From Desulfosporosinus nitroreducens (GTDB lineage Bacteria > Bacillota > Desulfitobacteriia > Desulfitobacteriales > Desulfitobacteriaceae): a stretch of DNA of 64,000 nucleotides. Each line of letters begins with the position of its first letter. The first letter of the stretch is position 1. A model generated the notes under the pieces. That model made no database searches. It was not told the DNA's origin and worked only from the letters and a program-made list of their open reading frames with translations. The stretch lies in contig NZ_JAMHFY010000017.1 of assembly GCF_023897015.1 (NCBI RefSeq), positions 1-64,000 of the forward strand, written 5' to 3'. Made by a program: the position numbers and the translations under genes. Positions 13,503 through 53,948 of this stretch are shown piece by piece.

Positions 13503-14438
13503 ATGAATTCAACATATACACCATTGATTCATACCATTCGAAGATTTAACCGATTTTACACTAATATCCTTGGACTTTTGGATCATCATATGCTTGACAG
13601 TGATTTTTCCCTGTCAGAAGCTCGTGTATTGTACGAAATTGGGCATATGGAGAATTGTACTTCTAAAAAATTAATTGAGGAACTAAGAATCGACTCAGGC
13701 TATCTAAGCAGGATTATAAAACGCTTTGATAAGCACAATTTGACTTATAGAGTACAGTCCACTGAGGATGGCCGGTTGTATTATCTTTATCTTACTGATA
13801 ATGGAAAAGAGACGCTTTCAAAGCTGGATAATCAATCCGATCAACATATCTATCAGATGATTGTACAATTACAGGAGCAAAACCAAAAAAGGCTTATTGA
13901 AGGTATGCAAGCGATTGAAAGTGCGCTGTCAAGAGATTCTGTTTCTAGAAACGAAAAGATAAACTTGCGTTACGAGTTGATGCCTGGAGATGTAGGTCAG
14001 CTAATTCATCTGCATGGTTGGATATATGCCCAAGAATGTGGGTATAACCATGTTTTTGAAGGCTATGTTTGTAAGACCTTATCTAACTTCTTTGAAAACT
14101 ATAGTCCGCAGAAGGATAGGTTTTGGTTTGCCGAAGTTGATGGAGAGATGATAGGAGCTATTGCAATCGTCGGACATTCGGGAGAAAAAGCTCAGCTTAG
14201 GTGGTTTATACTTCATCCGAAATATCGAGGAATAGGTCTTGGCAAAAAGCTGTTGAATGAAGCCATGCAATACTGTAGAGAGAAGGGGTATAAAAATTTA
14301 TTTTTGGTAACCACGGAAGACCAAAAAACAGCTATAAAAATGTACTTGAAAGCTGGATTCAGAAAAGTGGCCGCGGATGAAAATCATGCATGGGGCAAGG
14401 ATTTGATTGAGCAGACCTTTGAGTTAAATTTACCATAA
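13503..14438 (+). CDS. MarR-family regulator fused to a GNAT acetyltransferase
   Basis: 311 residues from ATG 13503, eight bases after GAGGGG. Residues about 1-145 are a MarR winged helix: SLSEARVLYEIG, then the recognition helix in LRIDSGYLSRIIKRFDKH and the wing VQSTEDGRLYYLYLT. Residues about 155-311 are a GNAT domain with the acetyl-CoA loop motif HPKYRGIGLGKKLL and a beta-bulge VTTEDQKTAIKMYLKAGF. Such fusions are known in many bacteria; the acetylated substrate is unknown. The upstream tandem palindromes are probable operators. Confidence 0.88.
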   Translation: MNSTYTPLIHTIRRFNRFYTNILGLLDHHMLDSDFSLSEARVLYEIGHMENCTSKKLIEELRIDSGYLSRIIKRFDKHNLTYRVQSTEDGRLYYLYLTDNGKETLSKLDNQSDQHIYQMIVQLQEQNQKRLIEGMQAIESALSRDSVSRNEKINLRYELMPGDVGQLIHLHGWIYAQECGYNHVFEGYVCKTLSNFFENYSPQKDRFWFAEVDGEMIGAIAIVGHSGEKAQLRWFILHPKYRGIGLGKKLLNEAMQYCREKGYKNLFLVTTEDQKTAIKMYLKAGFRKVAADENHAWGKDLIEQTFELNLP

Positions 14439-14641
14439 TTATGCCTAAATAAGTCAGCACTTTAGCCTTAGCCCTCAACCCATTGAACATCTGATGTGGG
14501 GTCCCTTGTCAAGTCTAACCCAGAGGCTTAATTCACCTCGGATTATTCATTATTTCCCCTGTCTGCTTGACAGGGGTCAGTTCACTCATCATCGGCTGTT
14601 CTTAATATTAGTTTATAAAATTCTCTAAAGTTAATCCTAAC

Positions 14642-40342: not shown

Positions 40343-42613
40343 TTATGCTGGAAATTTCCCTGACTTGCTAATACTCATTCTGAACAGGCGATGTCTCGCT
40401 CTAGTCATGGCGACATAGAGCAATTTAAGATCAAGGTCTTCATCACTATAGTGTTCATGGATATTAAAAATAAACACAACGTCAAATTCTAGTCCTTTGG
40501 AAACGTACGAGGGCACGATCAAAACTTGTCCTTCATAAAGGGTTTCATCCCCATGCAAAATTTCACAGGGAATATTCAGGTTCTTTTTGAGTAATTGACA
40601 TTCTTTAAGGGTTTTCCCGATAAGGGCGATTGATTTATAACCGCCTGCAAGTTGGATTTCAAGTAAATTTTCTATGGCATGAACCATATCCTTAACACTT
40701 TTGAAAGCTAGAACATCGGGAGGAACTCCATGGCGGATGACTGGTTTCGCCAAGAGGATATCGGTTGCTTTCACTTTTTTAATAACTTGGTTGGCATATT
40801 CCATAATTTCAATAGTGGTTCGATAGCTTTGTTCGAGAGTTAAATAGTTGCAGTCAAGAGCTGGAAAGACCTCTTGCCTAACCTGATCCCAACTTTTTAT
40901 CCCTCGATAAGCGTGAATTCCCTGAGCCAAATCGCCAAAAATCGTAAACATATCTGTCTTTAAAACTTTGCGCAATGTATAGAGCTGAAAGATACTAAGA
41001 TCCTGGGCTTCGTCAATAAAGACATGACTGATATCAAACTTTTCTTCATAACCGAACAGAAGTTGCTTTAAATAGACTAGAGGAGCCAAATCCTCCAGTT
41101 CAAGTTTATTTTGGGCGATCAGTTCGGCAGAAGAACTGCACAGGTATTCAAGGGTAGCTCTGTCCAGCCCTTTCGCACCCGTATCTAAGAAAACGTCTGG
41201 ATCAGCAATAATCCTTTTATAGTGATCTAACAGATCAATTTTAGGGAAGAGCGCAAGATACTTCTTTACCACAGTCTTGGCGGAATTGGTGAGCTTAGTT
41301 AGAGTTTCATTGCGCGAGTCAACTAAAGCAATCCCTTTTTCACGCCGCACCTCTTCATCGAAGGTTGATGAAGAACGCACTTCCTGGATTTGACGGTTAA
41401 ACTCCTCTTCGACTAGTTTTAAGGCAGGCTCTTTGGCTGCTTTGAGTTTATTAGTCAACACTTTTTTAACCATTTCAATTCGCTTCTGTAAGGGAAGAAA
41501 ACTGTATTCCTCAAGAAAAACTCGTTGAATGTCTTCTGCTTCTAAAATGACATAGTCTCCGAGTTTAAAATCAACCTTTGGTACAAACGTCTCTTGTAAG
41601 CGTTCTACATAATGATCGAGGACATCTTTAAATTGAAGGGAACCTTTGAATTCTGAGGCTCCAATAATATAGGAAGAATTTAATGAGGACTGGTTATTTT
41701 CTTCCAGTAACTGAAATAGTTTTTGTTCTGGGGGAACTAATTTGATTTTCGCAGTTTTACCAATCAGCTCCAACATGAAGTCGATCAAAGTCGTCTGAGT
41801 CACTCTTTCTGCGCCCAACTCCGGTAAGGCTTCGGAGATATAATTAAGAAATAAGCGATTCGGGCCGAGAATAATGAAATTCTCGGGGATGAAACGATCT
41901 TCATAGGTATAGATAAGATAGGCCATGCGATGAATTGCTATGGTCGTTTTACCGCTGCCGGCAACTCCTTGAACGATTAAGGGAGCGATATCTGCGCGGA
42001 TCACCCGGTTTTGTTCCGCTTGAATCGAGGTGGCGATATCCTTGAGCCGATTATCGGCACTTGCTTCCAGAGAGGCCTGAAGGAAAGCGTCATTGGTTGT
42101 AATGTCGATATCTCGAATCTCCAATAACTGTCCGTTTTCAATGGTATATTGCCGTTTGAGACCCAGCTCTCCTTGAATGGTTCCTGTGGGAGACTGATAA
42201 TCAACAGCCCCCAATCGCCCTTCATAATAGATGGAGGCAATAGGGGAGCGCCAATCAAGGATAAGGGGCTCTTGATCTTCCTGGGTAAGCAACGATAACT
42301 TGCCGATATAATAACGCTTAAAGTCTGGACTGCCTTCTTGTTTAAAGTCAATCCGGGAAAAGTAGGGCTTGGCAAGTCCTTGATTGAGTTGGTAAAAGTG
42401 TTGTTCTCCGTATTCTAAAAGCTGAGAAGTCACCAAAATAGAAATGTAACTCTGGCTGCTGTCTAAATAATCTAAGTCAATAAAAGCTTGGCGAATCTCT
42501 TCGCGCTGACCTTGGCGGTTCTCCACAATCAAATTAATCATTTTCTTCATGTATGTGATCGTAGAAGCAAGACGTTTTGCTTCTTGGTCAAATTCGTGAT
42601 GATGACTGCTCAT
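40343..42613 (-). CDS. helD: HelD-type UvrD-like helicase (RNA polymerase recycling factor)
   Basis: 756 residues. N-terminal coiled-coil arm (about 5-60), then the HelD-specific segment LILDWRSPIASIYYEG, Walker A GVAGSGKTTIAIHR, Walker B HVFIDEAQDLS, a QSYRTTIEIMEYAN motif and the C-terminal YVAMTRARHRL. HelD proteins are SF1-like motors that remove RNA polymerase from DNA rather than unwind DNA. The ribosome site AAGGGAG lies inside the tail of the broken MFS gene upstream, so it may once have been the second gene of that unit. Confidence 0.9.
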   Translation of the reverse strand: MSSHHHEFDQEAKRLASTITYMKKMINLIVENRQGQREEIRQAFIDLDYLDSSQSYISILVTSQLLEYGEQHFYQLNQGLAKPYFSRIDFKQEGSPDFKRYYIGKLSLLTQEDQEPLILDWRSPIASIYYEGRLGAVDYQSPTGTIQGELGLKRQYTIENGQLLEIRDIDITTNDAFLQASLEASADNRLKDIATSIQAEQNRVIRADIAPLIVQGVAGSGKTTIAIHRMAYLIYTYEDRFIPENFIILGPNRLFLNYISEALPELGAERVTQTTLIDFMLELIGKTAKIKLVPPEQKLFQLLEENNQSSLNSSYIIGASEFKGSLQFKDVLDHYVERLQETFVPKVDFKLGDYVILEAEDIQRVFLEEYSFLPLQKRIEMVKKVLTNKLKAAKEPALKLVEEEFNRQIQEVRSSSTFDEEVRREKGIALVDSRNETLTKLTNSAKTVVKKYLALFPKIDLLDHYKRIIADPDVFLDTGAKGLDRATLEYLCSSSAELIAQNKLELEDLAPLVYLKQLLFGYEEKFDISHVFIDEAQDLSIFQLYTLRKVLKTDMFTIFGDLAQGIHAYRGIKSWDQVRQEVFPALDCNYLTLEQSYRTTIEIMEYANQVIKKVKATDILLAKPVIRHGVPPDVLAFKSVKDMVHAIENLLEIQLAGGYKSIALIGKTLKECQLLKKNLNIPCEILHGDETLYEGQVLIVPSYVSKGLEFDVVFIFNIHEHYSDEDLDLKLLYVAMTRARHRLFRMSISKSGKFPA

Positions 42614-46662: not shown

Positions 46663-48147
46663 ATGGAAACTTTATCCTTCAGAGAGTCATGGTTTAGCAA
46701 TATTAAAAATGACGTATTGGCTGGGCTTGTCGTTTCCCTGGCTTTGATTCCAGAGGCGATCGCATTCTCAATTATTGCCGGGGTAGACCCAATGGTGGGT
46801 TTGTATTCCTCCTTTATCATTCCAATTGTGATTGCCTTTGTCGGAGGAAGGCCGGGAATGATTTCTGCGGCAACAGGGGCAATGGCTCTTTTATTTATTA
46901 CCTTAGTAAAAGAACATGGTATTGAGTATCTCTTTGCCGCTACGATATTAACAGGAATATTTCAGATCTTGTTTGGGACATTTAAACTGGCGAGATACAT
47001 GAAATTTATACCTCGCTCAGTGATGGTTGGGTTTGTTAATGCTTTAGCAATTATGATTTTCACGTCTCAATTTCCTTATCTTTTTGGCCAATCATGGCCG
47101 GCGTACGTTATGACCGTGGGTGCTTTAGTGATCATCTACGGTTTACCACTGATATTAAGGTCAATTCCTTCCACACTTGTGGCGATTGTTGGAATTACAG
47201 CTATTGCCATAATACTTGACATCAAGGTTCCGGTGATCGGAGACATGGGAATCATTACACGTTCCTTACCCAGTTTTTCTATACCTAACCTGCCGATAAC
47301 CCTGGAGACATTATTAATTATTGTACCGTATTCCTTTGCTCTAGCGATGGTAGGCCTGACTGAATCCTTGCTCACCGCCACGATTGTGGATGACATGACG
47401 GATACAGGAAGTAATAAAAACAAAGAGAGCCAGGGTCAGGGTATTTCTAATATTGTCGTCGGTTTATTCGGAGGGATGGCCGGGTGCGCCATGATTGGTC
47501 AGTCGGTCATTAATGTGAAATCAGGTGGAAGAGGTCGATTATCTACGTTTATTGCAGGGGCGTTTTTGATCGTTCTGATTATTGGTCTCAGGGATTATGT
47601 CGTGCAAATTCCTATGGCAGCCTTAGTTGCCGTGATGATAATGGTTTCAATTGGAACCTTTGATTGGCAATCGCTTAAAACCTTGCGAATTACTCCTAAA
47701 AGCGATGCCTTTGTCATGATTTTTACCGTTTTAACAGTTTTAGTAACTCATAATTTAGCCTTAGGCGTTATGGCGGGAGTTATTCTAAGTGCAGTCTTTT
47801 TTGCATCAAAAATTTCTAAGGTTTATGCAAAGAAACAAATTGAGCAAGATGGTTTAGTGAAAACATACAAAATTAGTGGGCAGCTGTTTTTCGTATCTGT
47901 AACAGATTTGCTGAATGTATTTGATTTTACGAACGATAACAAGGATAATATACGAGAAGTGGATATAAATTTTAGCAATGCGAATCTGTGGGATGATTCG
48001 GCCGTAGCTGCGATTGACAAGATTGTCTTCAAATACAGGCAATATGATATTAAGGTTACCTTAAGCGGACTAAACGAACAGAGTGCTCGATTGATTGAAA
48101 AATTGGCCACCCATACAGATTTGAACTCTGGACTGCCTAAACACTAA
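46663..48147 (+). CDS. SulP-family anion transporter with STAS domain
   Basis: 494 residues. Ten or more hydrophobic segments (about 15-385) include the SulP signature [22 protein letters not shown] and GLYSSF, and the [14 protein letters not shown] region. The STAS domain is at about 400-490 ([29 protein letters not shown] type). SulP proteins carry sulfate, bicarbonate or other anions coupled to Na+ or H+. In a probable sulfate reducer, sulfate or bicarbonate are both plausible. The uspA gene follows by 39 bases. Confidence 0.88.
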
Positions 48148-48186
48148 GAAGAGACAAATGCCAAATATAAATTGGGGGTTGAACGT

Positions 48187-48606
48187 ATGTTTAATAAAAT
48201 CCTATTGGCAGCCGATGGCTCGGAACACTCAATAAGAGCTGCTGAAAAAGCAATCATTTTGACGCAAAATAACCCTGAGGCAAAGATTGAGATTGTCTAT
48301 GTGATTAACAGTGAGGCATCTAAAGCGGACGTATTACGTGAGTTAGATACAGACGCTATAACCTTAAAAAGGAATCAAAAGTTGCTTCCGCTACAAGAGA
48401 AGATGAAACAGGCGAAGGTTGATTTTAAGGTGAAGTTTATCCACGGTGAACCAGGGCCTGCGCTCGTTAAATATGCGAATGATGGTAAATTTGATATTGT
48501 TGTTATAGGTAGTCGGGGTTTGAATACTTTACAGGAGTTTGTCTTAGGAGGGGTTAGTCATAAGGTAGCCAAAAGGGCTAGCTGTCCTGTATTAATAGTA
48601 AAATAG
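48187..48606 (+). CDS. Universal stress protein (UspA family)
   Basis: 139 residues from ATG 48187 (an upstream TTG at 48172 is less likely). Begins KILLAADGSEHSIRAAEKA and ends with the ATP-binding motif GSRGLNTLQEFVLGGVSHKVAKRASCPVLIV (read as G-x2-G-x9-G-S/V). It belongs to the ATP-binding Usp class. SulP-Usp pairs are common and suggest the Usp modulates the transporter. Confidence 0.9.
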   Translation: MFNKILLAADGSEHSIRAAEKAIILTQNNPEAKIEIVYVINSEASKADVLRELDTDAITLKRNQKLLPLQEKMKQAKVDFKVKFIHGEPGPALVKYANDGKFDIVVIGSRGLNTLQEFVLGGVSHKVAKRASCPVLIVK

Positions 48607-48759
48607 ACCCTTTATGGATTTCTTGACGATTACTAACCAATTGGATATTGGGTAAACTTCGCTAAGTGTCTATTATTTGAACCTTGTGGAAAATCACAGT
48701 TCTAACTTTAAATGATGGAATAGGGAAGTTTTTTTCATATAGTCAACCAACTATTTTTG

Positions 48760-48816
48760 ACACAAACGAAAAGCCTATCATTCTGCAATTTGGAATAATA
48801 GGCTTTTCGTTTGTGT
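48760..48816. terminator. Strong terminator after the sulP-usp unit
   Basis: Arms 48760-48778 and 48798-48816 pair perfectly over 19 bp. The stretch 48607-49228 contains no gene I can support. Confidence 0.7.
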
Positions 48817-48897
48817 TTGTGTCATTTAGTTTTAAAATGCCTATTCCGCCAAGGCCACCAGCAGCACTATGTGATTTTCTCACTCCTATCTGGGCAA

Positions 48898-48940
48898 GCA
48901 CAGGCTTCAGCGTTACGTCGGAGCCTGTGTTATCTTTTTT
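48898..48940 (+). terminator. Second terminator-like hairpin
   Basis: CACAGGCT and AGCCTGTG enclose a 13-base loop and are followed by TTATCTTTTTT. Confidence 0.5.
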
Positions 48941-49228
48941 ATGCGTTCAAGGCACTTTAGCGTTACTTCATTGTAAGTTTGTCTTGGGCGTAGAGCTTAA
49001 TGTAAACAAATATTTAATGCGTTCGTTAAGCACATTAGTATATGTACTGCTTTAAGTCCAAAGACTTTATTCACTTCATTTGAATTGCAATCAACACTGA
49101 TGAAGGAAAAGGCGAATACCTTTAATTAGCAACATTGATAGGTAACGGTAGTATAAATGAGTGCATAGATAGTATATAATTATGATGCAAACTAGAATTA
49201 TTCTAATGTTATACGAGGAGTTAGAACA

Positions 49229-51811
49229 ATGGAAAACAAATGTTTTAAAATTGTTATATCAGGAGATATATGTGTAAATTTATTACAGTGGAGAACTGAT
49301 CAACAGTGTACTAAGGGTTTGAATTGGCAGTCTTATCCACATGTTCACAATAGTTTAAAAAATGGCGAGGCACTACTTTTGTCAAAGTTTGTAACGTTAG
49401 CATCTCAGGCTTCAATAAGTTCACCGCAAATTCAAGACATAGAAGCTGCGTTGCCCAAAGAACTTCTTCGTTCTACTGTAGAGTTAGAGCTTTTTCCTGA
49501 AACCCTCAATAAAAATGATAATCACAAAGTCTACCGCATCAGCCGCTATCTTGGATTTACAGGACTGACCTCTTGTAGGCCTATGTTACTACCGATCATA
49601 GATGATGACCAAAATGCAGATATGGTCATATTAGATGATGAGAATAACGGTTTTAATGCTAACGAAGAATTCTGGCCTTTAGCAATAAAAACACCTGGAA
49701 AATCACCTATTGTAATATATAAGGTGAATCATCCTACCAGTTCTAGTAAGCTTTGGCATAATATAAGAGATTTTCATATTCAAAATACCATTGTTGTTAT
49801 CAATAGTGATGATTTACGAGCAAAAGGAGTTAATATTAGTAAGAGCCTTTCTTGGGAAAAGACGGCCCAGGATTTTGTGTGGCAAATGAATCATAACCCC
49901 GACCTGGCCTTCCTTGCTCACTGTCATCACCTTATAGTACCTTTCGGCCTTGAAGGTGCGATATATTATCAAAATAAAGGAGTAGCGGAATCTCAACTGT
50001 ATTTCTTAACTTATGAATTTGAAGGAGGTTTCATCAAAGACAATCAAGGCAAAATGTTTGGATTAACCTCTTGCTTTGTTGCTGCGCTGTCCCGTAATAT
50101 AGCTACAGGAATTTGTAATAATGAAGAACTTAGTAAATCAATAGGGGAAGGTATACGCGAAGGCATTGTTGCTGCTCAAAAATATTTTGTTTATGGTTTT
50201 GGTGAAACTATTGAGGAAAGTGCTTTTCCTAATCCATTAATCTTTAAGGAAGCCGAAAATGATTTTGTCTGTAAAGAGCATATTCAAGATGTACTGATAC
50301 GTGATACAAATAATTCTTCAATCTGTGAGACTGACTGGTATATTATTAAAGACAAAAGTTCTAGTAGTTTAGCAGACATAGCTTATAATATCGTCAAAAG
50401 TGGAGAAAAAAGTGCCCTCAAGTATATCCCCATAGCACAATTTGGCAAATTAAAAACAGTGGACAGGGCAGAAATTGAGGGTTATAGAAGCATCAAAAAC
50501 CTAATGACGGAGTATATTTCTACGAAAAATACGGTTCGTCCGCTGTGCATTGCTGTATTTGGAACACCAGGGTCCGGGAAATCCTTTGGGGTAGCAGAAG
50601 TAGCTTCCAGTATTGCCCCAGATTTAATGGATCAATTAAATTTTAATTTATCTCAATTTCAATCATTGGTAGACTTATTTGCTGCCTTCCATAAAGTCCG
50701 AGACCTTTGCCTGAAGGGAAAAGTTCCGCTAGTTTTTTTTGACGAATTTGATTCGGCTTTTGAAGGAAATCTAGGTTGGTTAAAATATTTTCTAGCACCT
50801 ATGCAGGATGGGGAATTTAGAGAAGGAGATTCTATTCATCCTATTGGGAAAGCTATTTTTGTCTTTGCCGGTGGCACCAGTAGTACATTCCAAGAATTTG
50901 GCGGAGAAGATATTACGGATGAATTGGAATATAAACAATTTCTGAAAAAATTTCAAAGTGCTAAAGGTCCAGACTTTGTAAGTCGTCTAAGAGGGTACGT
51001 AAATATTCTCGGACCTAATCAAACAGATGAACAGAAGGATCAATTATTCATTGTTCGTAGAGCAATGCTATTGCGATCCCTACTGGAACGCAAAGTACCT
51101 CATCTATTAAATGAGCGAGGGGAAGCTCAAATAGATAATGGTATTTTACGAGCAATGCTCAAAGTTACACGATATAAACATGAATCCAGATCAATGGAAG
51201 CCATCTTAGAGATGAGTATGCTAACCGACAGTAAAAAATGGGAGCAATCACATTTGCCTTCTAAAGAACAGTTGAAATTACATGTTGATGAAGAACAATT
51301 TTTACGTCGTTTAATGCATGATGCTTTCTATAGTGAGAAATTTGAAAGTTTGGCAATGGATCTTTATAGGCATACTTTGCTCAACAAAGATAAGAATGAA
51401 TCAGAATCAAATTGCCTAAAATCCTGGGAAACTCTTTGTAATGAACAGAAAGAGTCTATCTACGAACAAATAAAGCATATTCCTGATGCTTTGCATAGGA
51501 TTGATTACGATATTATCTCTGTTAAGGAAAAACTCGAAGCTGTAACATTTACAGAACGTGAATTAATTGCTTTAGCTGAATACGAGCATGAACGTTGGTT
51601 ACTTCAAAAAAAGGAAGCTGGCTGGAAACTAGATGCTATTATAGATGAAGAGAGAAAATTACACCCTTTACTAGTACCTTGGAAAAAATTATCCGACAAT
51701 AACAGAAATGAATTAATTGCAACGATTAAATTTTGGCCAGAAATCCTGGCAAATTCAAACTTTAAGATAGAACGACTCAAGTTTCTTTCTTATTGTGAGA
51801 CTGCACTTTAA
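49229..51811 (+). CDS. AAA+ protein with PfkB-like N-terminus and C-terminal RyR domain
   Basis: 860 residues. Residues about 1-360 resemble a sugar-kinase (PfkB/ribokinase-like) fold: KIVISGDICVNLLQW at the start, LDDENNGFNANEEFWP and IVVINSDDLRAKGVNISKSL. The AAA+ module (about 430-700) has Walker A GTPGSGKS (445-452) and Walker B LVFFDEFDSAF (about 502-512). Residues about 775-835 (LAEYEHERWLLQKKEAGW, then HPLLVPWKKLSDNNR) are an RyR domain. Prokaryotic RyR domains occur in proteins proposed to act in phage defence or nucleotide-ligand sensing. It is alone between terminators. Function inferred. Confidence 0.8.
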   Translation: MENKCFKIVISGDICVNLLQWRTDQQCTKGLNWQSYPHVHNSLKNGEALLLSKFVTLASQASISSPQIQDIEAALPKELLRSTVELELFPETLNKNDNHKVYRISRYLGFTGLTSCRPMLLPIIDDDQNADMVILDDENNGFNANEEFWPLAIKTPGKSPIVIYKVNHPTSSSKLWHNIRDFHIQNTIVVINSDDLRAKGVNISKSLSWEKTAQDFVWQMNHNPDLAFLAHCHHLIVPFGLEGAIYYQNKGVAESQLYFLTYEFEGGFIKDNQGKMFGLTSCFVAALSRNIATGICNNEELSKSIGEGIREGIVAAQKYFVYGFGETIEESAFPNPLIFKEAENDFVCKEHIQDVLIRDTNNSSICETDWYIIKDKSSSSLADIAYNIVKSGEKSALKYIPIAQFGKLKTVDRAEIEGYRSIKNLMTEYISTKNTVRPLCIAVFGTPGSGKSFGVAEVASSIAPDLMDQLNFNLSQFQSLVDLFAAFHKVRDLCLKGKVPLVFFDEFDSAFEGNLGWLKYFLAPMQDGEFREGDSIHPIGKAIFVFAGGTSSTFQEFGGEDITDELEYKQFLKKFQSAKGPDFVSRLRGYVNILGPNQTDEQKDQLFIVRRAMLLRSLLERKVPHLLNERGEAQIDNGILRAMLKVTRYKHESRSMEAILEMSMLTDSKKWEQSHLPSKEQLKLHVDEEQFLRRLMHDAFYSEKFESLAMDLYRHTLLNKDKNESESNCLKSWETLCNEQKESIYEQIKHIPDALHRIDYDIISVKEKLEAVTFTERELIALAEYEHERWLLQKKEAGWKLDAIIDEERKLHPLLVPWKKLSDNNRNELIATIKFWPEILANSNFKIERLKFLSYCETAL

Positions 51812-51949
51812 TTTTCCCCAAAAAGAGCCTTTGGGGAGGCGATGTCGCGTTCTGTAAAGCTTTGGCTATGGTCGGAATAGGTTTTGGCGCGATTTCAACC
51901 GAGGTCGCCGACCGGTTCAGCGATTCCATCCCTGCCTTTGTCACGCAGG
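51812..51949 (+). pseudogene. Fragment of an unidentified membrane-type protein fused to BlaR1 debris
   Basis: The frame reads GDVAFCKALAMVGIGFGAIS, then TEVADRFSDSIPAFVTQGIR and ends abruptly where the sequence becomes BlaR1-like in another frame. It resembles a membrane component of a conjugation or secretion system, but the piece is too short to name. No start codon. Confidence 0.35.
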
Positions 51950-52567
51950 GAATACGCCAGGGCATTACTCGATGTTGCTTCTTGTATGGGGGAACGCAGG
52001 CCTGTTGTAGCCGTATCGTCGTTTGCGGAGGGAAATTTAAAGGATAGAGTGAAAAACGTCTTAACCGGACGGAAATATTCTTATATAGCTTCCTTCGCTG
52101 CGGGTGCTGTAGTAATCATTGCCGGAACTGTATTGCTTACAGGGGCACCTACCAAGAGCGAAGATATCAGTCCCGGCGTAAGTATAACCGAAACTCAGGA
52201 TGAAGGTGCTGAAGCAGAAGTTATCAGTCTGGTCGAGAATTTCGGCAAAAAACTTCAGACGGTTTCCCTTACAGCGCCTAGAGATTACGTAAACAAAAGT
52301 ATCCAAGAGAACTACGGAGATCTAGTATCCCCCGAGCTTTTGTCGGCATGGCAAAAAGATCTTCAGGATGTTCCGGGCAGGGTGGTTTCGAGTCCATGGC
52401 CGGATCGAATAGAGATTCTAAGCATTCAGAAATCATCATCAGAGTATGACGTGAAGGGCGAAATCTTAGAGATAACGAGTGTGGAGATACAAAATGGTGG
52501 TGTTGCCGCCAAGCGGCCAATTGATCTTAGGGTAAGGAAAGTCGAGAATCGCTGGCTGATTACTTAG
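51950..52567 (+). pseudogene. C-terminal part of a BlaR1/M56-type sensor, catalytic half missing
   Basis: The frame from 51950 reads EYARALLDVASC, then SSFAEGNLKDRVKNVLTGRKY, the conserved segment after the M56 protease domain of BlaR1. A membrane helix (YIASFAAGAVVIIAGTVLLTG) and an external domain of about 140 residues follow, ending ENRWLIT. The HExxH half is absent and the upstream part belongs to another gene in another frame, so it is a rearranged remnant. Confidence 0.7.
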
Positions 52568-52604
52568 GTCAAACTTGGTGCCTACGAAGTAGGATTATAG
52601 TGGG

Positions 52605-52788
52605 GCAGAGCTCTTAATCATGGGTGAGACTACAGCTGGCCTTGATCCAATGGCGCGCAACGACTTTTAGACATCCTTGCTACCCTGATCCAAGATGAGC
52701 GTAAGTCCGTCTTTTTTTTCACCCATATTACCCCGGCTTTAGATAAGATTGCCGACTATGTGTCGTTCATTAATCAGGGTTATGCATC
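52605..52788 (+). pseudogene. ABC-transporter ATPase fragment
   Basis: AELLIMGETTAGLDPMARND corresponds to a Walker B/D-loop in which the catalytic DEPT has become GETT. After a one-base shift it continues LDILATLIQDERKSVFFFTH, the H-loop region, and ADYVSFINQG. Only the last third of the ATPase remains. Confidence 0.75.
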
Positions 52789-52796
52789 CGTTGTAT

Positions 52797-53027
52797 TTTG
52801 CTGGTATAGATCAAGGTACAAAAACTCAAATCAAAATTGGTGATGTGCCAGCAACACTACATGAGAGTGAAATTGCCAAAGTAAATGCCATTCAATTCAT
52901 AAAGAATGGTATTGAGTACACGGCTGGCACCCGATATGATGGGGGTATTTCGCTTGATGACTTGAAAAAAATCTGCGCAAGTATAGTTGTTCCTGTGAAC
53001 AACCCCCCTGCAAAACTTTTATATTGA
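52797..53027 (+). pseudogene. DUF4367-like fragment 1
   Basis: Reads GDVPATLHESEIAKVNAIQF, then GIEYTAGTRYDGGISLDDLK and stops at 53027. The pattern (strand, strand, then S-x-D-D-L-x-K-I) is that of the C-terminal half of DUF4367 proteins, which accompany sigma factors or M56 sensors. No start region is present. Confidence 0.5.
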
Positions 53028-53030
53028 TAA

Positions 53031-53441
53031 AACGGTCCTACAGCTTCTGAGGGGTTAAGTTTTAAAACCCTTCAACCGGGAGATATCGTCGTTCCGCAGG
53101 GGCATAAGTTCCAAGTCGCATCTTCCAGAATAAGCACCGAAGGAGACAAAAAGTCAGAAGCCTTTACATTGTCCTATACTACCGCAGGAGCATCATATTT
53201 AGATGTAGAGATAGCGTTCGGAGAACCGACTCCAGTATTAACGCCTGACTCTGATTTTGATACAAAACAAATCGGCGGAACTGAAGTTAAACTACGGTTG
53301 AAAAACAACATTCAAGGGTTGCCAGCCGCTAAATTTATAATCCCCGAGAAGGGTTTGGAATGTATAGTTTATTCGACGGTGCAGGAATTTGAAGTAGAGA
53401 AAGCGGCGGAATCAATTTTACAAGCTTATGCAAAGCTGTAA
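53031..53441 (+). pseudogene. DUF4367-like fragment 2
   Basis: Open from 53031 without a start: GDIVVPQGHKFQVASSRIST, then FTLSYTTAGASYLDVEIAFG and a C-terminal repeat of the DUF4367 pattern ending AAESILQAYAKL. It is a second, tandem remnant of the same kind. Confidence 0.5.
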
Positions 53442-53540
53442 CAATGAGACATCACTTTAGCTTTAACAAGAGATTAGGTATTCAAAGTAACCTGAGCTCT
53501 TTTAGGTTTTCAATGGGGCTCTTAAACGTGTATTTCAACC

Positions 53541-53592
53541 TTGACATATGTAGATGGCCGATATATTATCATATATAGATTATCTACATATG
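53541..53592 (+). promoter_or_regulatory. Promoter and operator of the padR-ftsW-like unit
   Basis: -35 TTGACA (53541-53546), 17-bp spacer, -10 TATTAT (53564-53569). The inverted repeat CATATGTAGAT (53545-53555) and ATCTACATATG (53582-53592) brackets the -10. It contains the ATGT/ACAT halves typical of PadR operators, implying autorepression. Confidence 0.7.
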
Positions 53593-53603
53593 GAGGTGTA
53601 AAT

Positions 53604-53948
53604 ATGGCAATCGATAAAAGTCTTTTAACAGGAAGTACCAGTATGCTTATCTTAAAGCTGCTTGACGGAACGGATATGTACGGCTACCAGATGATTGAAG
53701 AACTTAGAAAGAAGTCAAACAATGCTTTTGATTTAAAAGCAGGAACATTATATCCACTGCTCCACACCTTAGAGCAGAAAAATATGCTCACTTCTTATGA
53801 AGAGGTCGCTGATAACGCTAGAGTACGGAAATACTATAGTATTACTAAACACGGCCGCCAGCAGTTGAAGGAGAAAAAAGAAGAATGGAAAGTATACACC
53901 GCTGCGGTAAATGATGTTTTAGGAGGTGCAAGTTTTGCAACAGCCTAG
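53604..53948 (+). CDS. PadR-family transcriptional regulator
   Basis: 114 residues from ATG 53604, behind GGAGGTG. The winged helix includes MLILKLLDGTDMYGYQMIEEL, then LKAGTLYPLLHTLEQKNMLTSY and RKYYSITKHGRQQLKEKK, the PadR signature. It overlaps the next gene, which starts at TTG 53935 behind AGGAGGT inside padR. Its operator is probably the inverted repeat around its promoter. Confidence 0.92.
   Translation: MAIDKSLLTGSTSMLILKLLDGTDMYGYQMIEELRKKSNNAFDLKAGTLYPLLHTLEQKNMLTSYEEVADNARVRKYYSITKHGRQQLKEKKEEWKVYTAAVNDVLGGASFATA

What the first reader, a model, noticed from the sequence alone, without database searches (positions are those of the whole stretch)
49229..51811. PfkB-like / AAA+ / RyR-domain protein, candidate defence or nucleotide-sensing protein
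The three-part architecture is visible in motifs. RyR domains in prokaryotes have been linked by comparative genomics to conflict systems and nucleotide signals. The gene stands alone between terminators and next to a zone of gene debris, a typical setting for defence islands.
Basis: partly seen in the sequence, partly recalled or inferred. Interest (0 to 1): 0.62.

Follow-up and report, generated by a model that had tools for sequence, protein, structure and literature searches.

The report
Bacterial ryanodine-receptor-domain ATPase, probable nucleotide sensor
This gene encodes a bacterial protein that joins a sugar-kinase-like domain and a motor ATPase to the same paired domain that animal calcium channels use to bind nucleotides and dantrolene, and relatives of it sit beside bacterial immune-signalling genes, so it probably switches on when it senses a nucleotide alarm signal.

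Summary
Window 49229-51811 (+) encodes an intact 860-aa protein: a ribokinase/PfkB fold (residues 3-348, Z 20), an AAA+ ATPase with intact motifs, and a C-terminal RyR domain that is a full tandem Repeat12-type module (human RyR3 R12, Z 14.7 over 157 residues). The ribokinase part is probably a pseudoenzyme: the catalytic Asp is missing in 22 of 23 family rows, this one included.

The defence link comes from relatives, not from this locus. Of 21 lineages, 11 have SLOG, TIR, DUF4062, SIR2 or a second RyR gene nearby, sometimes in one operon; in four more a fused SLOG domain replaces RyR; six have neither. A 2026 preprint shows that phage RyR domains bind or cleave the TIR-made immune signals 2'/3'cADPR. 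This protein keeps three of the four key residues (H787, W790, H812) but has Leu829 for the catalytic Asp, which favours binding over cleavage.

In Desulfosporosinus the gene is a solitary, AT-rich, horizontally moved unit under purifying selection; its genome shows no TIR gene. Best reading: a nucleotide-gated AAA+ switch of the TIR/SLOG/RyR NAD-signalling network. Ligand, output and anti-phage function are untested.

The parts
49229..51811 (+). CDS, 860 aa: pseudo-ribokinase + AAA+ + tandem RyR (R12-type)
   Evidence: dN/dS 0.087-0.126
49235..50272 (+). ribokinase/PfkB-fold domain, residues 3-348
   Evidence: VIA-align Z 20.0, rmsd 4.2, 289 aligned, to pseudouridine kinase 7c1z; Foldseek best E 1.9e-7
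50069..50071 (+). codon of Ser281, where active ribokinases have the catalytic Asp of GAGD
   Evidence: alignment of 24 rows: Asp in 1 of the 23 rows that have a letter there (L006); the role of the GAGD motif is recalled knowledge
50465..51304 (+). AAA+ ATPase domain, about residues 413-692
   Evidence: invariant columns; Pfam AAA in 14 of 16 members
50561..50584 (+). Walker A GTPGSGKS, residues 445-452
   Evidence: GxPGxGK in 24 of 24 rows
50729..50752 (+). Walker B LVFFDEFD, residues 501-508
   Evidence: DEFD in 24 of 24 rows
50984..50986 (+). Arg586, proposed Arg finger (PDFVSRLRG)
   Evidence: Arg in 24 of 24 rows; the role is inferred
51188..51190 (+). Arg654, proposed sensor-2 Arg (RSME)
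   Evidence: Arg in 24 of 24 rows; the role is inferred
51305..51778 (+). tandem RyR (R12-like) module, residues 693-850; first repeat degenerate
   Evidence: model m2387c935f5d6; Z 14.7 to human RyR3 R12, 157 aligned; two Pfam RyR hits in L007 and L008 and L078
51569..51769 (+). second RyR repeat, residues 781-847 (PF02026)
   Evidence: E 3e-10
51587..51715 (+). ligand-site residues by alignment to RyDEP: His787 (H75), Trp790 (W78), His812 (H100) kept; Leu829 in place of catalytic D117
   Evidence: roles in RyDEP from PMC13232231
49147..51828 (+). transferred unit: gene plus about 80 bases upstream, 92-98% identical in L001-L004 (Desulfosporosinus) at other sites
   Evidence: GC 36% against 41.6% for the window, only 2 of 246 sliding windows as low
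46663..48606 (+). left neighbours SulP transporter and universal stress protein; this pair occurs in four congeners in which the core was not found
51944..52587 (+). gene debris downstream; 98% identical to L001 (D. lacus) 13902-14545, which lies inside a 632-aa ORF there

Best explanation
The protein is a nucleotide-gated AAA+ switch. Its C-terminal tandem RyR (R12-like) module binds an adenine/ADP-ribose-type ligand, most likely a TIR-made signal such as 2'cADPR or 3'cADPR or a related ADP-ribose compound. Binding changes the state of the AAA+ ATPase, probably a ring-forming remodeller. The N-terminal ribokinase fold, without its catalytic Asp, acts as a second ligand-binding or partner-binding module rather than as a kinase. 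In other bacteria it is the hub of a multi-gene system: a TIR, DUF4062-STAND or SIR2 protein senses the invader or uses NAD+, and RyR- and SLOG-bearing proteins (this core, a TrkA/RyR membrane protein, a SLOG protein) receive the signal. In Desulfosporosinus only the receiver/effector gene has been carried along. Shown: the predicted folds, the motifs and the gene neighbourhoods. Inferred: the ligand, the gating, the ATPase activity, the output (growth arrest or cell death) and anti-phage action.
For: R12 fold at Z 14.7 to human RyR3 R12 crystallised with azumolene and AMP-PCP. H787, W790 and H812 match RyDEP ligand residues; RyDEP cleaves 2'/3'cADPR and six of eight tested phage homologues bind them (PMC13232231). 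Partners (SLOG, TIR, DUF4062, SIR2, separate RyR) in 11 of 21 lineages. L078 carries core, SLOG, TrkA-RyR, TIR-WD40, a small RyR and a DUF4062-WD40 protein on one strand. Fused SLOG replaces RyR in 4 of 21; these four group (100/99) with three cores that have a separate SLOG gene next door. Chance expectation within about 10 kb, 12 core genomes: TIR 0.069 expected, 2 seen; separate RyR 0.032 expected, 3 seen. AAA+ motifs kept in 24 of 24 rows and kinase Asp lost in 22 of 23. Purifying selection. Patchy: 5 of 29 congeners; moved unit.
Against: In Desulfosporosinus no partner lies in the stretches read, and the own genome (99.99% complete) has no TIR_2 or TIR match and one weak SLOG-profile match, E 7e-4, so no source of the proposed signal is identified. 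Six of 21 lineages have neither a partner nor a fused SLOG, three of these no recognised RyR either. No PADLOC model matches. The RyDEP catalytic Asp is Leu here, so the published chemistry does not transfer. The H100 position is His in 11 of 12 core domains but in only 1 of 9 RyR domains outside the core, so ligands may differ. Here the ribokinase sugar-site motifs are also degenerate (GD..N for GD..D, GE for GG). TIR_2 genes also occur in 4 of 14 control genomes. Partner queries came from the first loci found, so part of 11 of 21 is circular. I saw no Clp-type pore loop, so protein threading is doubtful. No experiment tests any step.
Confidence: 0.55

Rival explanations
1. Sponge or counter-signal role: the mobile unit carries the protein to soak up cADPR-type signals made by other defence systems, as phage RyDEP-type sponges do, and so protects the element or tunes host immunity.
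For: RyR residues for binding kept with the catalytic Asp replaced; sponge-type phage RyR homologues that bind without cleaving exist (PMC13232231); the gene moves as a solitary unit.
Against: A sponge needs no 690-residue AAA+/ribokinase core with ATPase motifs kept in 24 of 24 rows. Relatives sit in operons with presumed signal makers, as receivers would. The whole protein has no match in 50,697 phage records at E 0.01, and none was confirmed in viral contigs.
Confidence: 0.15
2. Metabolic regulator: the ribokinase-fold and RyR domains read pentose, nucleoside or NAD+ status for ordinary metabolism, with no immune role.
For: Ribokinase fold closest to pseudouridine kinases and ribokinases; here a solitary gene next to transport and stress genes; no TIR in the genome.
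Against: Flanking genes differ between the Desulfosporosinus loci apart from pieces shared with D. lacus. Rare and patchy: the core in 6 of 398, 4 of 301, 2 of 346 and 2 of 349 genomes of four phyla, centre genomes included. Recurrent TIR, SIR2, SLOG and DUF4062 partners.
Confidence: 0.15
3. Active enzyme: either the RyR domain cleaves a nucleotide (glycosidase) or the ribokinase domain phosphorylates one, to make or end a signal.
For: RyDEP is a glycosidase (PMC13232231); 8 of 12 core RyR domains keep both residues of its dyad, H75 and D117; L006 keeps GCGD in the kinase part.
Against: In this protein the RyDEP catalytic Asp is Leu829 and the ribokinase Asp is Ser281. In the preprint none of the eight other homologues tested cleaved the signals.
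Confidence: 0.08
4. Decaying hitchhiker without current function in Desulfosporosinus.
For: Lies beside gene debris and apart from the partners seen in relatives.
Against: dN/dS 0.087-0.126 against three congeners and a full-length frame; about 80 bases upstream move with it.
Confidence: 0.07

Closest known systems
Repeat12 (R12) domain of animal ryanodine receptors (PF02026)
   Same: Tandem two-repeat fold, Z 14.7 over 157 of 168 residues; the H, W and H of the ligand site are kept in the second repeat.
   Different: No channel; fused to AAA+ and a ribokinase fold; the first repeat is degenerate.
RyDEP and its phage homologues (PMC13232231)
   Same: RyR fold; H75/W78/H100 equivalents present.
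   Different: D117 is Leu829; large ATPase rather than a small phage protein; cellular gene.
Thoeris and other TIR/SLOG NAD-signal systems
   Same: Some relatives co-occur with TIR, SIR2 and SLOG genes, the kinds of parts Thoeris uses; the L078 TIR and L025 SIR2 proteins match PADLOC ThsB and ThsA models, among others.
   Different: No ThsA/ThsB pair at this locus; the receiver domain is RyR; an AAA+ core is involved; PADLOC gives no model for the core.
PfkB/ribokinase family
   Same: Fold (Z 20.0) and the N-terminal GD motif.
   Different: Catalytic Asp absent; GG motif is GE here; Pfam PfkB matches 0 of 16 members.
Nucleotide-centric conflict systems of Burroughs and colleagues, 2015 (recalled; text not held)
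   Same: From memory: SLOG, TIR and related sensors in nucleotide-signalling operons; it may already mention prokaryotic RyR domains.
   Different: Could not be checked. The listings of nine library searches showed no paper that names this PfkB-AAA-RyR core.

Membership tests
RyR domain (PF02026), R12 type | profile match above curated cut-off | tested here: met
   E 3e-10, 40.7 bits against a cut-off of 27.4
RyR domain (PF02026), R12 type | tandem two-repeat R12 fold | tested here: met
   predicted model: Z 14.7, rmsd 3.4, 157 aligned to 9l91; Pfam sees one repeat in this protein and two in relatives L007, L008 and L078
RyR domain (PF02026), R12 type | binds adenine nucleotide or cADPR-type ligand | not testable with these tools
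   only residues compared: H787, W790, H812 kept
RyDEP glycosidase | catalytic dyad H75 and D117 | tested here: not met
   H787 present, D117 replaced by L829
PfkB/ribokinase family | ribokinase fold | tested here: met
   predicted model: Z 20.0, rmsd 4.2, 289 aligned; Foldseek best E 1.9e-7
PfkB/ribokinase family | catalytic Asp of the GAGD motif | tested here: not met
   Ser281; Asp in 1 of 23 rows
PfkB/ribokinase family | Pfam PfkB profile match | tested here: not met
   0 of 16 members at E <= 0.01
AAA+ ATPase | Walker A and Walker B | tested here: met
   24 of 24 rows
AAA+ ATPase | Arg finger and sensor-2 Arg | tested here: inconclusive
   Arg586 and Arg654 in 24 of 24 rows; assignment by resemblance only
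Thoeris | TIR (ThsB) gene beside the effector | tested here: not met
   no TIR in the own genome by PF13676 or PF01582; TIR genes do lie near relatives L008, L027, L078, L080, L081. ThsB_TIR (PF08937) was not searched in the genome
Thoeris | ThsA effector of a modelled type | tested here: not met
   no PADLOC or NCBIfam match of the protein at E <= 1
anti-phage defence system | protects cells from phage | not testable with these tools
   needs an infection assay

The most novel reading that the evidence does not exclude
A previously undescribed family of NAD-signal receivers: a pseudo-ribokinase/AAA+ hub that plugs in either a tandem R12 (RyR) or a SLOG sensor and works with a TrkA/RyR membrane protein and TIR or DUF4062 STAND sensors as a multi-gene immune system. 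It would mean that the R12 pair of animal ryanodine receptors descends from, or shares ancestry with, bacterial receptors for cyclic ADP-ribose signals, with the Desulfosporosinus protein a stripped-down, sense-only version.
Probability: 0.3. Interest if true: 0.85.

Novelty: new variant of a known kind. Interest (0 to 1): 0.64.

Why it matters
Whether cyclic ADP-ribose acts on animal ryanodine receptors directly has, from general knowledge, long been argued. Here is a bacterial protein with the complete two-repeat R12 module, in a family some of whose operons contain the enzymes expected to make such signals. It offers a tractable system in which to test ligand binding and gating, and names a candidate multi-gene immune system with a swappable sensor (RyR or SLOG) on one AAA+ hub.

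Tried and rejected
Thoeris proper was set aside: no TIR and no ThsA model here. An active sugar kinase was set aside: catalytic Asp lost. A phage or viral origin of the whole protein was sought and not found: no match in phage records at E 0.01; viral contigs gave 338 pattern matches and no confirmed relative. RyR domains alone do occur in phages: 90 records at E up to 1 with the L009 RyR region as query, the listed ones mostly weak. Plasmids gave two records with the core; two other members as queries added only partial hits. Promoter and terminator scans found no more sites than shuffles. Rfam found nothing at 48500-53700. A clean empty site was not obtained: four congeners hold the left flank up to window base 48606 or 48607, but no piece of 60 bases or more of the right flank matched their fetched stretches (L098-L101). 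RyDEP residue Q54 could not be placed with certainty, my reading and the MAFFT result differing, so it is left out. The tree left out L001 and L004 and has long branches (L105, L083, L011, L025, L027, L026) whose places are unsure. The VIA fold list for the whole protein is filled by the kinase domain, so a solved relative of the AAA+ part or of the whole is not excluded.

Limits of counts: the 21 lineages are 25 core loci with five close Desulfosporosinus loci counted once; several stretches end within 10 kb of the gene (L009, L028, L078, L105 among them). Genes were called as longest open frames, unreliable in GC-rich loci. Partner queries came from the first loci; of seven core loci read with the query set fixed (L055, L078, L079, L080, L081, L083, L105), four had partners (L078-L081), one had fused SLOG (L055), two had neither. 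The Poisson estimates use the 12 core-bearing whole genomes counted; the two plasmid records, L009 and the later genomes are not in them, and the genomes of L007, L008, L010, L011 and L027 were already known to have partners. The 21 RyR stretches without the core are those I fetched; many further RyR-only matches (for example G872, G800, G887, G1057) were not fetched.
Full report
What is there. Window 49229-51811 (+) is one open frame of 860 codons. Pfam finds the RyR domain at residues 781-847 (E 3e-10, above its cut-off) and only weak AAA matches; PADLOC and NCBIfam find nothing. The nearest named relatives are in Desulfosporosinus (best segments 95-98% identical in L001-L003, 89% in L004), then Clostridium sp. 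DSM 8431 (56%) and six more distant ones at 33-39%: Agromyces, Anaerolineales, Dehalococcoidia, Ignavibacteriales, Thermoleophilia and Aquibium. The window's own genome is called same-genus with G398, G401 and G411, whose contigs have the lengths of the D. fructosivorans, D. lacus and D. sp. BG records, so it is taken as Desulfosporosinus.

Fold. An AlphaFold2 model with 14 family rows has mean pLDDT 80.3. Residues 3-348 are a ribokinase fold: Z 20.0, rmsd 4.2, 289 aligned, to a pseudouridine kinase; Foldseek agrees. Pfam had not shown this: PfkB matches 0 of 16 members. The C-terminal 168 residues were modelled alone with 18 rows (pLDDT 82.6). They match human RyR3 Repeat12 with Z 14.7, rmsd 3.4, over 157 residues; the 28 best rows are all RyR proteins and the first unrelated row has Z 4.3 (Foldseek). 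So this is the two-repeat R12 module. Pfam sees only the second repeat here, but marks two RyR repeats in relatives L007 and L008 and L078.

Motifs. In an alignment of 24 core rows, Walker A (GxPGxGK) and Walker B (DEFD) are kept in 24, as are Arg586 and Arg654, which I read as Arg finger and sensor 2 (assignment inferred). The GAGD catalytic Asp of ribokinases (motif recalled) is Ser281 here; Asp occurs in 1 of 23 rows with a letter there, Agromyces L006. The N-terminal GD remains; the GG motif is kept in most relatives but reads GE here, and the second Asp of GD..D is Asn. The kinase part therefore looks like a binding module that has lost catalysis; here even the recalled sugar-site motifs are worn.

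The RyR ligand site. A 2026 preprint (PMC13232231; parts 1 and 2 of 6 read, passages) shows that RyDEP, gp78 of mycobacteriophage DyoEdafos, is an RyR-domain glycosidase for 2'cADPR and 3'cADPR; H75, W78, H100 and D117 contact the ligand and H75 and D117 form the catalytic dyad; six of eight other phage homologues bound the signals, and none of the eight cleaved them. I read gp78 from its record; the residue numbers fit. Aligned with 21 bacterial RyR domains, H75 and W78 are kept in 21 of 21. In the 12 core-fused domains H100 is His in 11 and D117 is Asp in 8; the four without the Asp are the three Desulfosporosinus rows (Leu) and Clostridium (Ile). In the 9 domains outside the core, H100 is His in 1 and D117 Asp in 5, so those may bind otherwise. 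The window protein keeps His787, Trp790 and His812 and has Leu829 for the catalytic acid. That favours a reader over an eraser, though the preprint shows that sequence likeness alone does not give activity.

Neighbourhoods. I read 25 core loci, 21 lineages if the five Desulfosporosinus loci of this type count once. Eleven of 21 have a SLOG, separate RyR, TIR, DUF4062 or SIR2 gene in the stretch held: L007, L008, L009, L010, L011, L025, L027, L078, L079, L080, L081. Four more (L028, L029, L030, L055) carry a SLOG domain fused in place of RyR. Six have neither: Desulfosporosinus, L005 and L006 (fused RyR), L026, L083 and L105 (no RyR or SLOG recognised). In L078 core, SLOG, TrkA-RyR, TIR-WD40, a small RyR and a DUF4062-WD40 protein follow on one strand; L079 has core, SLOG and TrkA-RyR. 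Pfam confirms TIR in L008, L027, L078 and L080 (there TIR-NB-ARC-TPR), TrkA-N with RyR in L009 and L078, DUF4062-NACHT in L010 and SIR2 in L011; the others rest on BLAST to these or, for L025, on the record's annotation, and the SLOG proteins, for which the two tested (L007, L078) had no Pfam match, on likeness to each other and recalled motifs. RyR proteins without the core look similar: in 11 of the 21 such stretches that I fetched a TIR, DUF4062 or SLOG gene is also present (L032 and L033 overlap on one contig). In the tree the four SLOG-fused cores form one group (100/100) within a group (100/99) whose other three members, L010, L080 and L081, have a separate SLOG gene next door: a gene pair on one side, a fusion on the other. 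In the 12 core genomes counted, TIR_2 has 0-2 and RyR 0-3 matches per genome; of 14 control genomes TIR_2 is in 4 and RyR in 0. By chance, 0.069 TIR and 0.032 separate RyR genes would lie within about 10 kb of the core; 2 and 3 do. Part of the 11 of 21 is circular because the queries came from the first loci; of seven core loci read afterwards, four had partners, one a fused SLOG and two nothing.

Desulfosporosinus itself. A core is in 5 of 29 genomes of the genus; in one of them (G421) it is a divergent core without RyR. A unit from about 49147 to 51826-51860 is 92-98% identical in L001-L004 (L004 in pieces, with masked bases), whose surroundings otherwise differ, apart from pieces that D. 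lacus (L001) shares up- and downstream. The SulP-stress-protein pair on its left is found at 85-90% identity, ending at 48606-48607, in four congeners in which the core search had no match. GC is 36% against 41.6% for the window. dN/dS is 0.087-0.126. So the gene is mobile, solitary and kept by selection. The own genome has one RyR match (this gene), no TIR_2 or TIR match and one weak SLOG-profile match, so whatever triggers it is not an obvious Thoeris-type TIR. PADLOC models match one of ten ORFs around it, an SF1 helicase, mostly through UvrD-type helicase models.

Reading. The best-supported account is a nucleotide-gated AAA+ switch of the TIR/SLOG/RyR network, with RyR or SLOG as exchangeable sensors. 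Shown: predicted folds, motifs, gene order, selection, mobility. Inferred: ligand identity, gating, output, immunity. The solitary Desulfosporosinus version is the hardest part to explain; a trigger from phage-induced NAD+ breakdown, from an incoming element, or from another NAD-using enzyme not searched for would each fit.

Known or new. The domain kinds are known, and a link between phage RyR domains and TIR signals is in print (PMC13232231). The listings of nine library searches showed no paper on this PfkB-AAA-RyR core. Four papers on related conflict systems were searched for terms only: PMC7159879, PMC8195603, PMC9503650 and PMC7824862 hold no word beginning with RyR in the text held (PMC8195603 lists two ryanodine-receptor papers among its references). 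The 2015 and 2020 papers of Burroughs and Aravind, which may mention it, are not held.

Noticed in passing
window 48696-48819 (hairpin 48760-48816): A 24-nt hairpin (96% complementary) lies in a stretch of about 124 bases that recurs at 91% identity at G000:C8:86593-86718: perhaps a small dispersed palindromic element.
   Followed up: partly
window 48936-49030: Up to 95 bases match many places in congeners at 74-94% identity: an unclassified dispersed repeat; Rfam gives nothing.
   Followed up: partly
L031 6486-13517 and L032 5497-14411: TIR or DUF4062 gene, TrkA-RyR membrane protein and SLOG-DUF4231-type protein close together without the AAA+ core: a related compact system.
   Followed up: partly
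L009 2740-4512, L008 7693-9462 (-), L078 8181-9920 (-): TrkA-RyR proteins start with what looks by eye like a two-helix, channel-like membrane segment before the TrkA-N part, without a recognisable K+ filter motif; a possible RyR-gated bacterial channel.
   Followed up: no
L034 7019-10647 and L057 6977-10602: An RyR protein overlaps a TIR gene by 4 bases in two genomes of one genus (G293, G377): a minimal RyR/TIR pair.
   Followed up: no
L097 6527-8580: A 95-aa single-RyR protein directly beside a TIR gene, in a genome (G309) that also has a SLOG-fused core on another contig.
   Followed up: no
L011 11990-18796 and L025 6870-13118 (-): Homologous giant SIR2 proteins (2268 and 2082 aa ORFs) near the core in Aquibium and on a Methylobacterium plasmid.
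   Followed up: partly
window 40343-42613 (-): SF1 helicase-like protein that matches many UvrD-type PADLOC models such as GajB; probably an ordinary helicase, no GajA-like partner sought.
   Followed up: no
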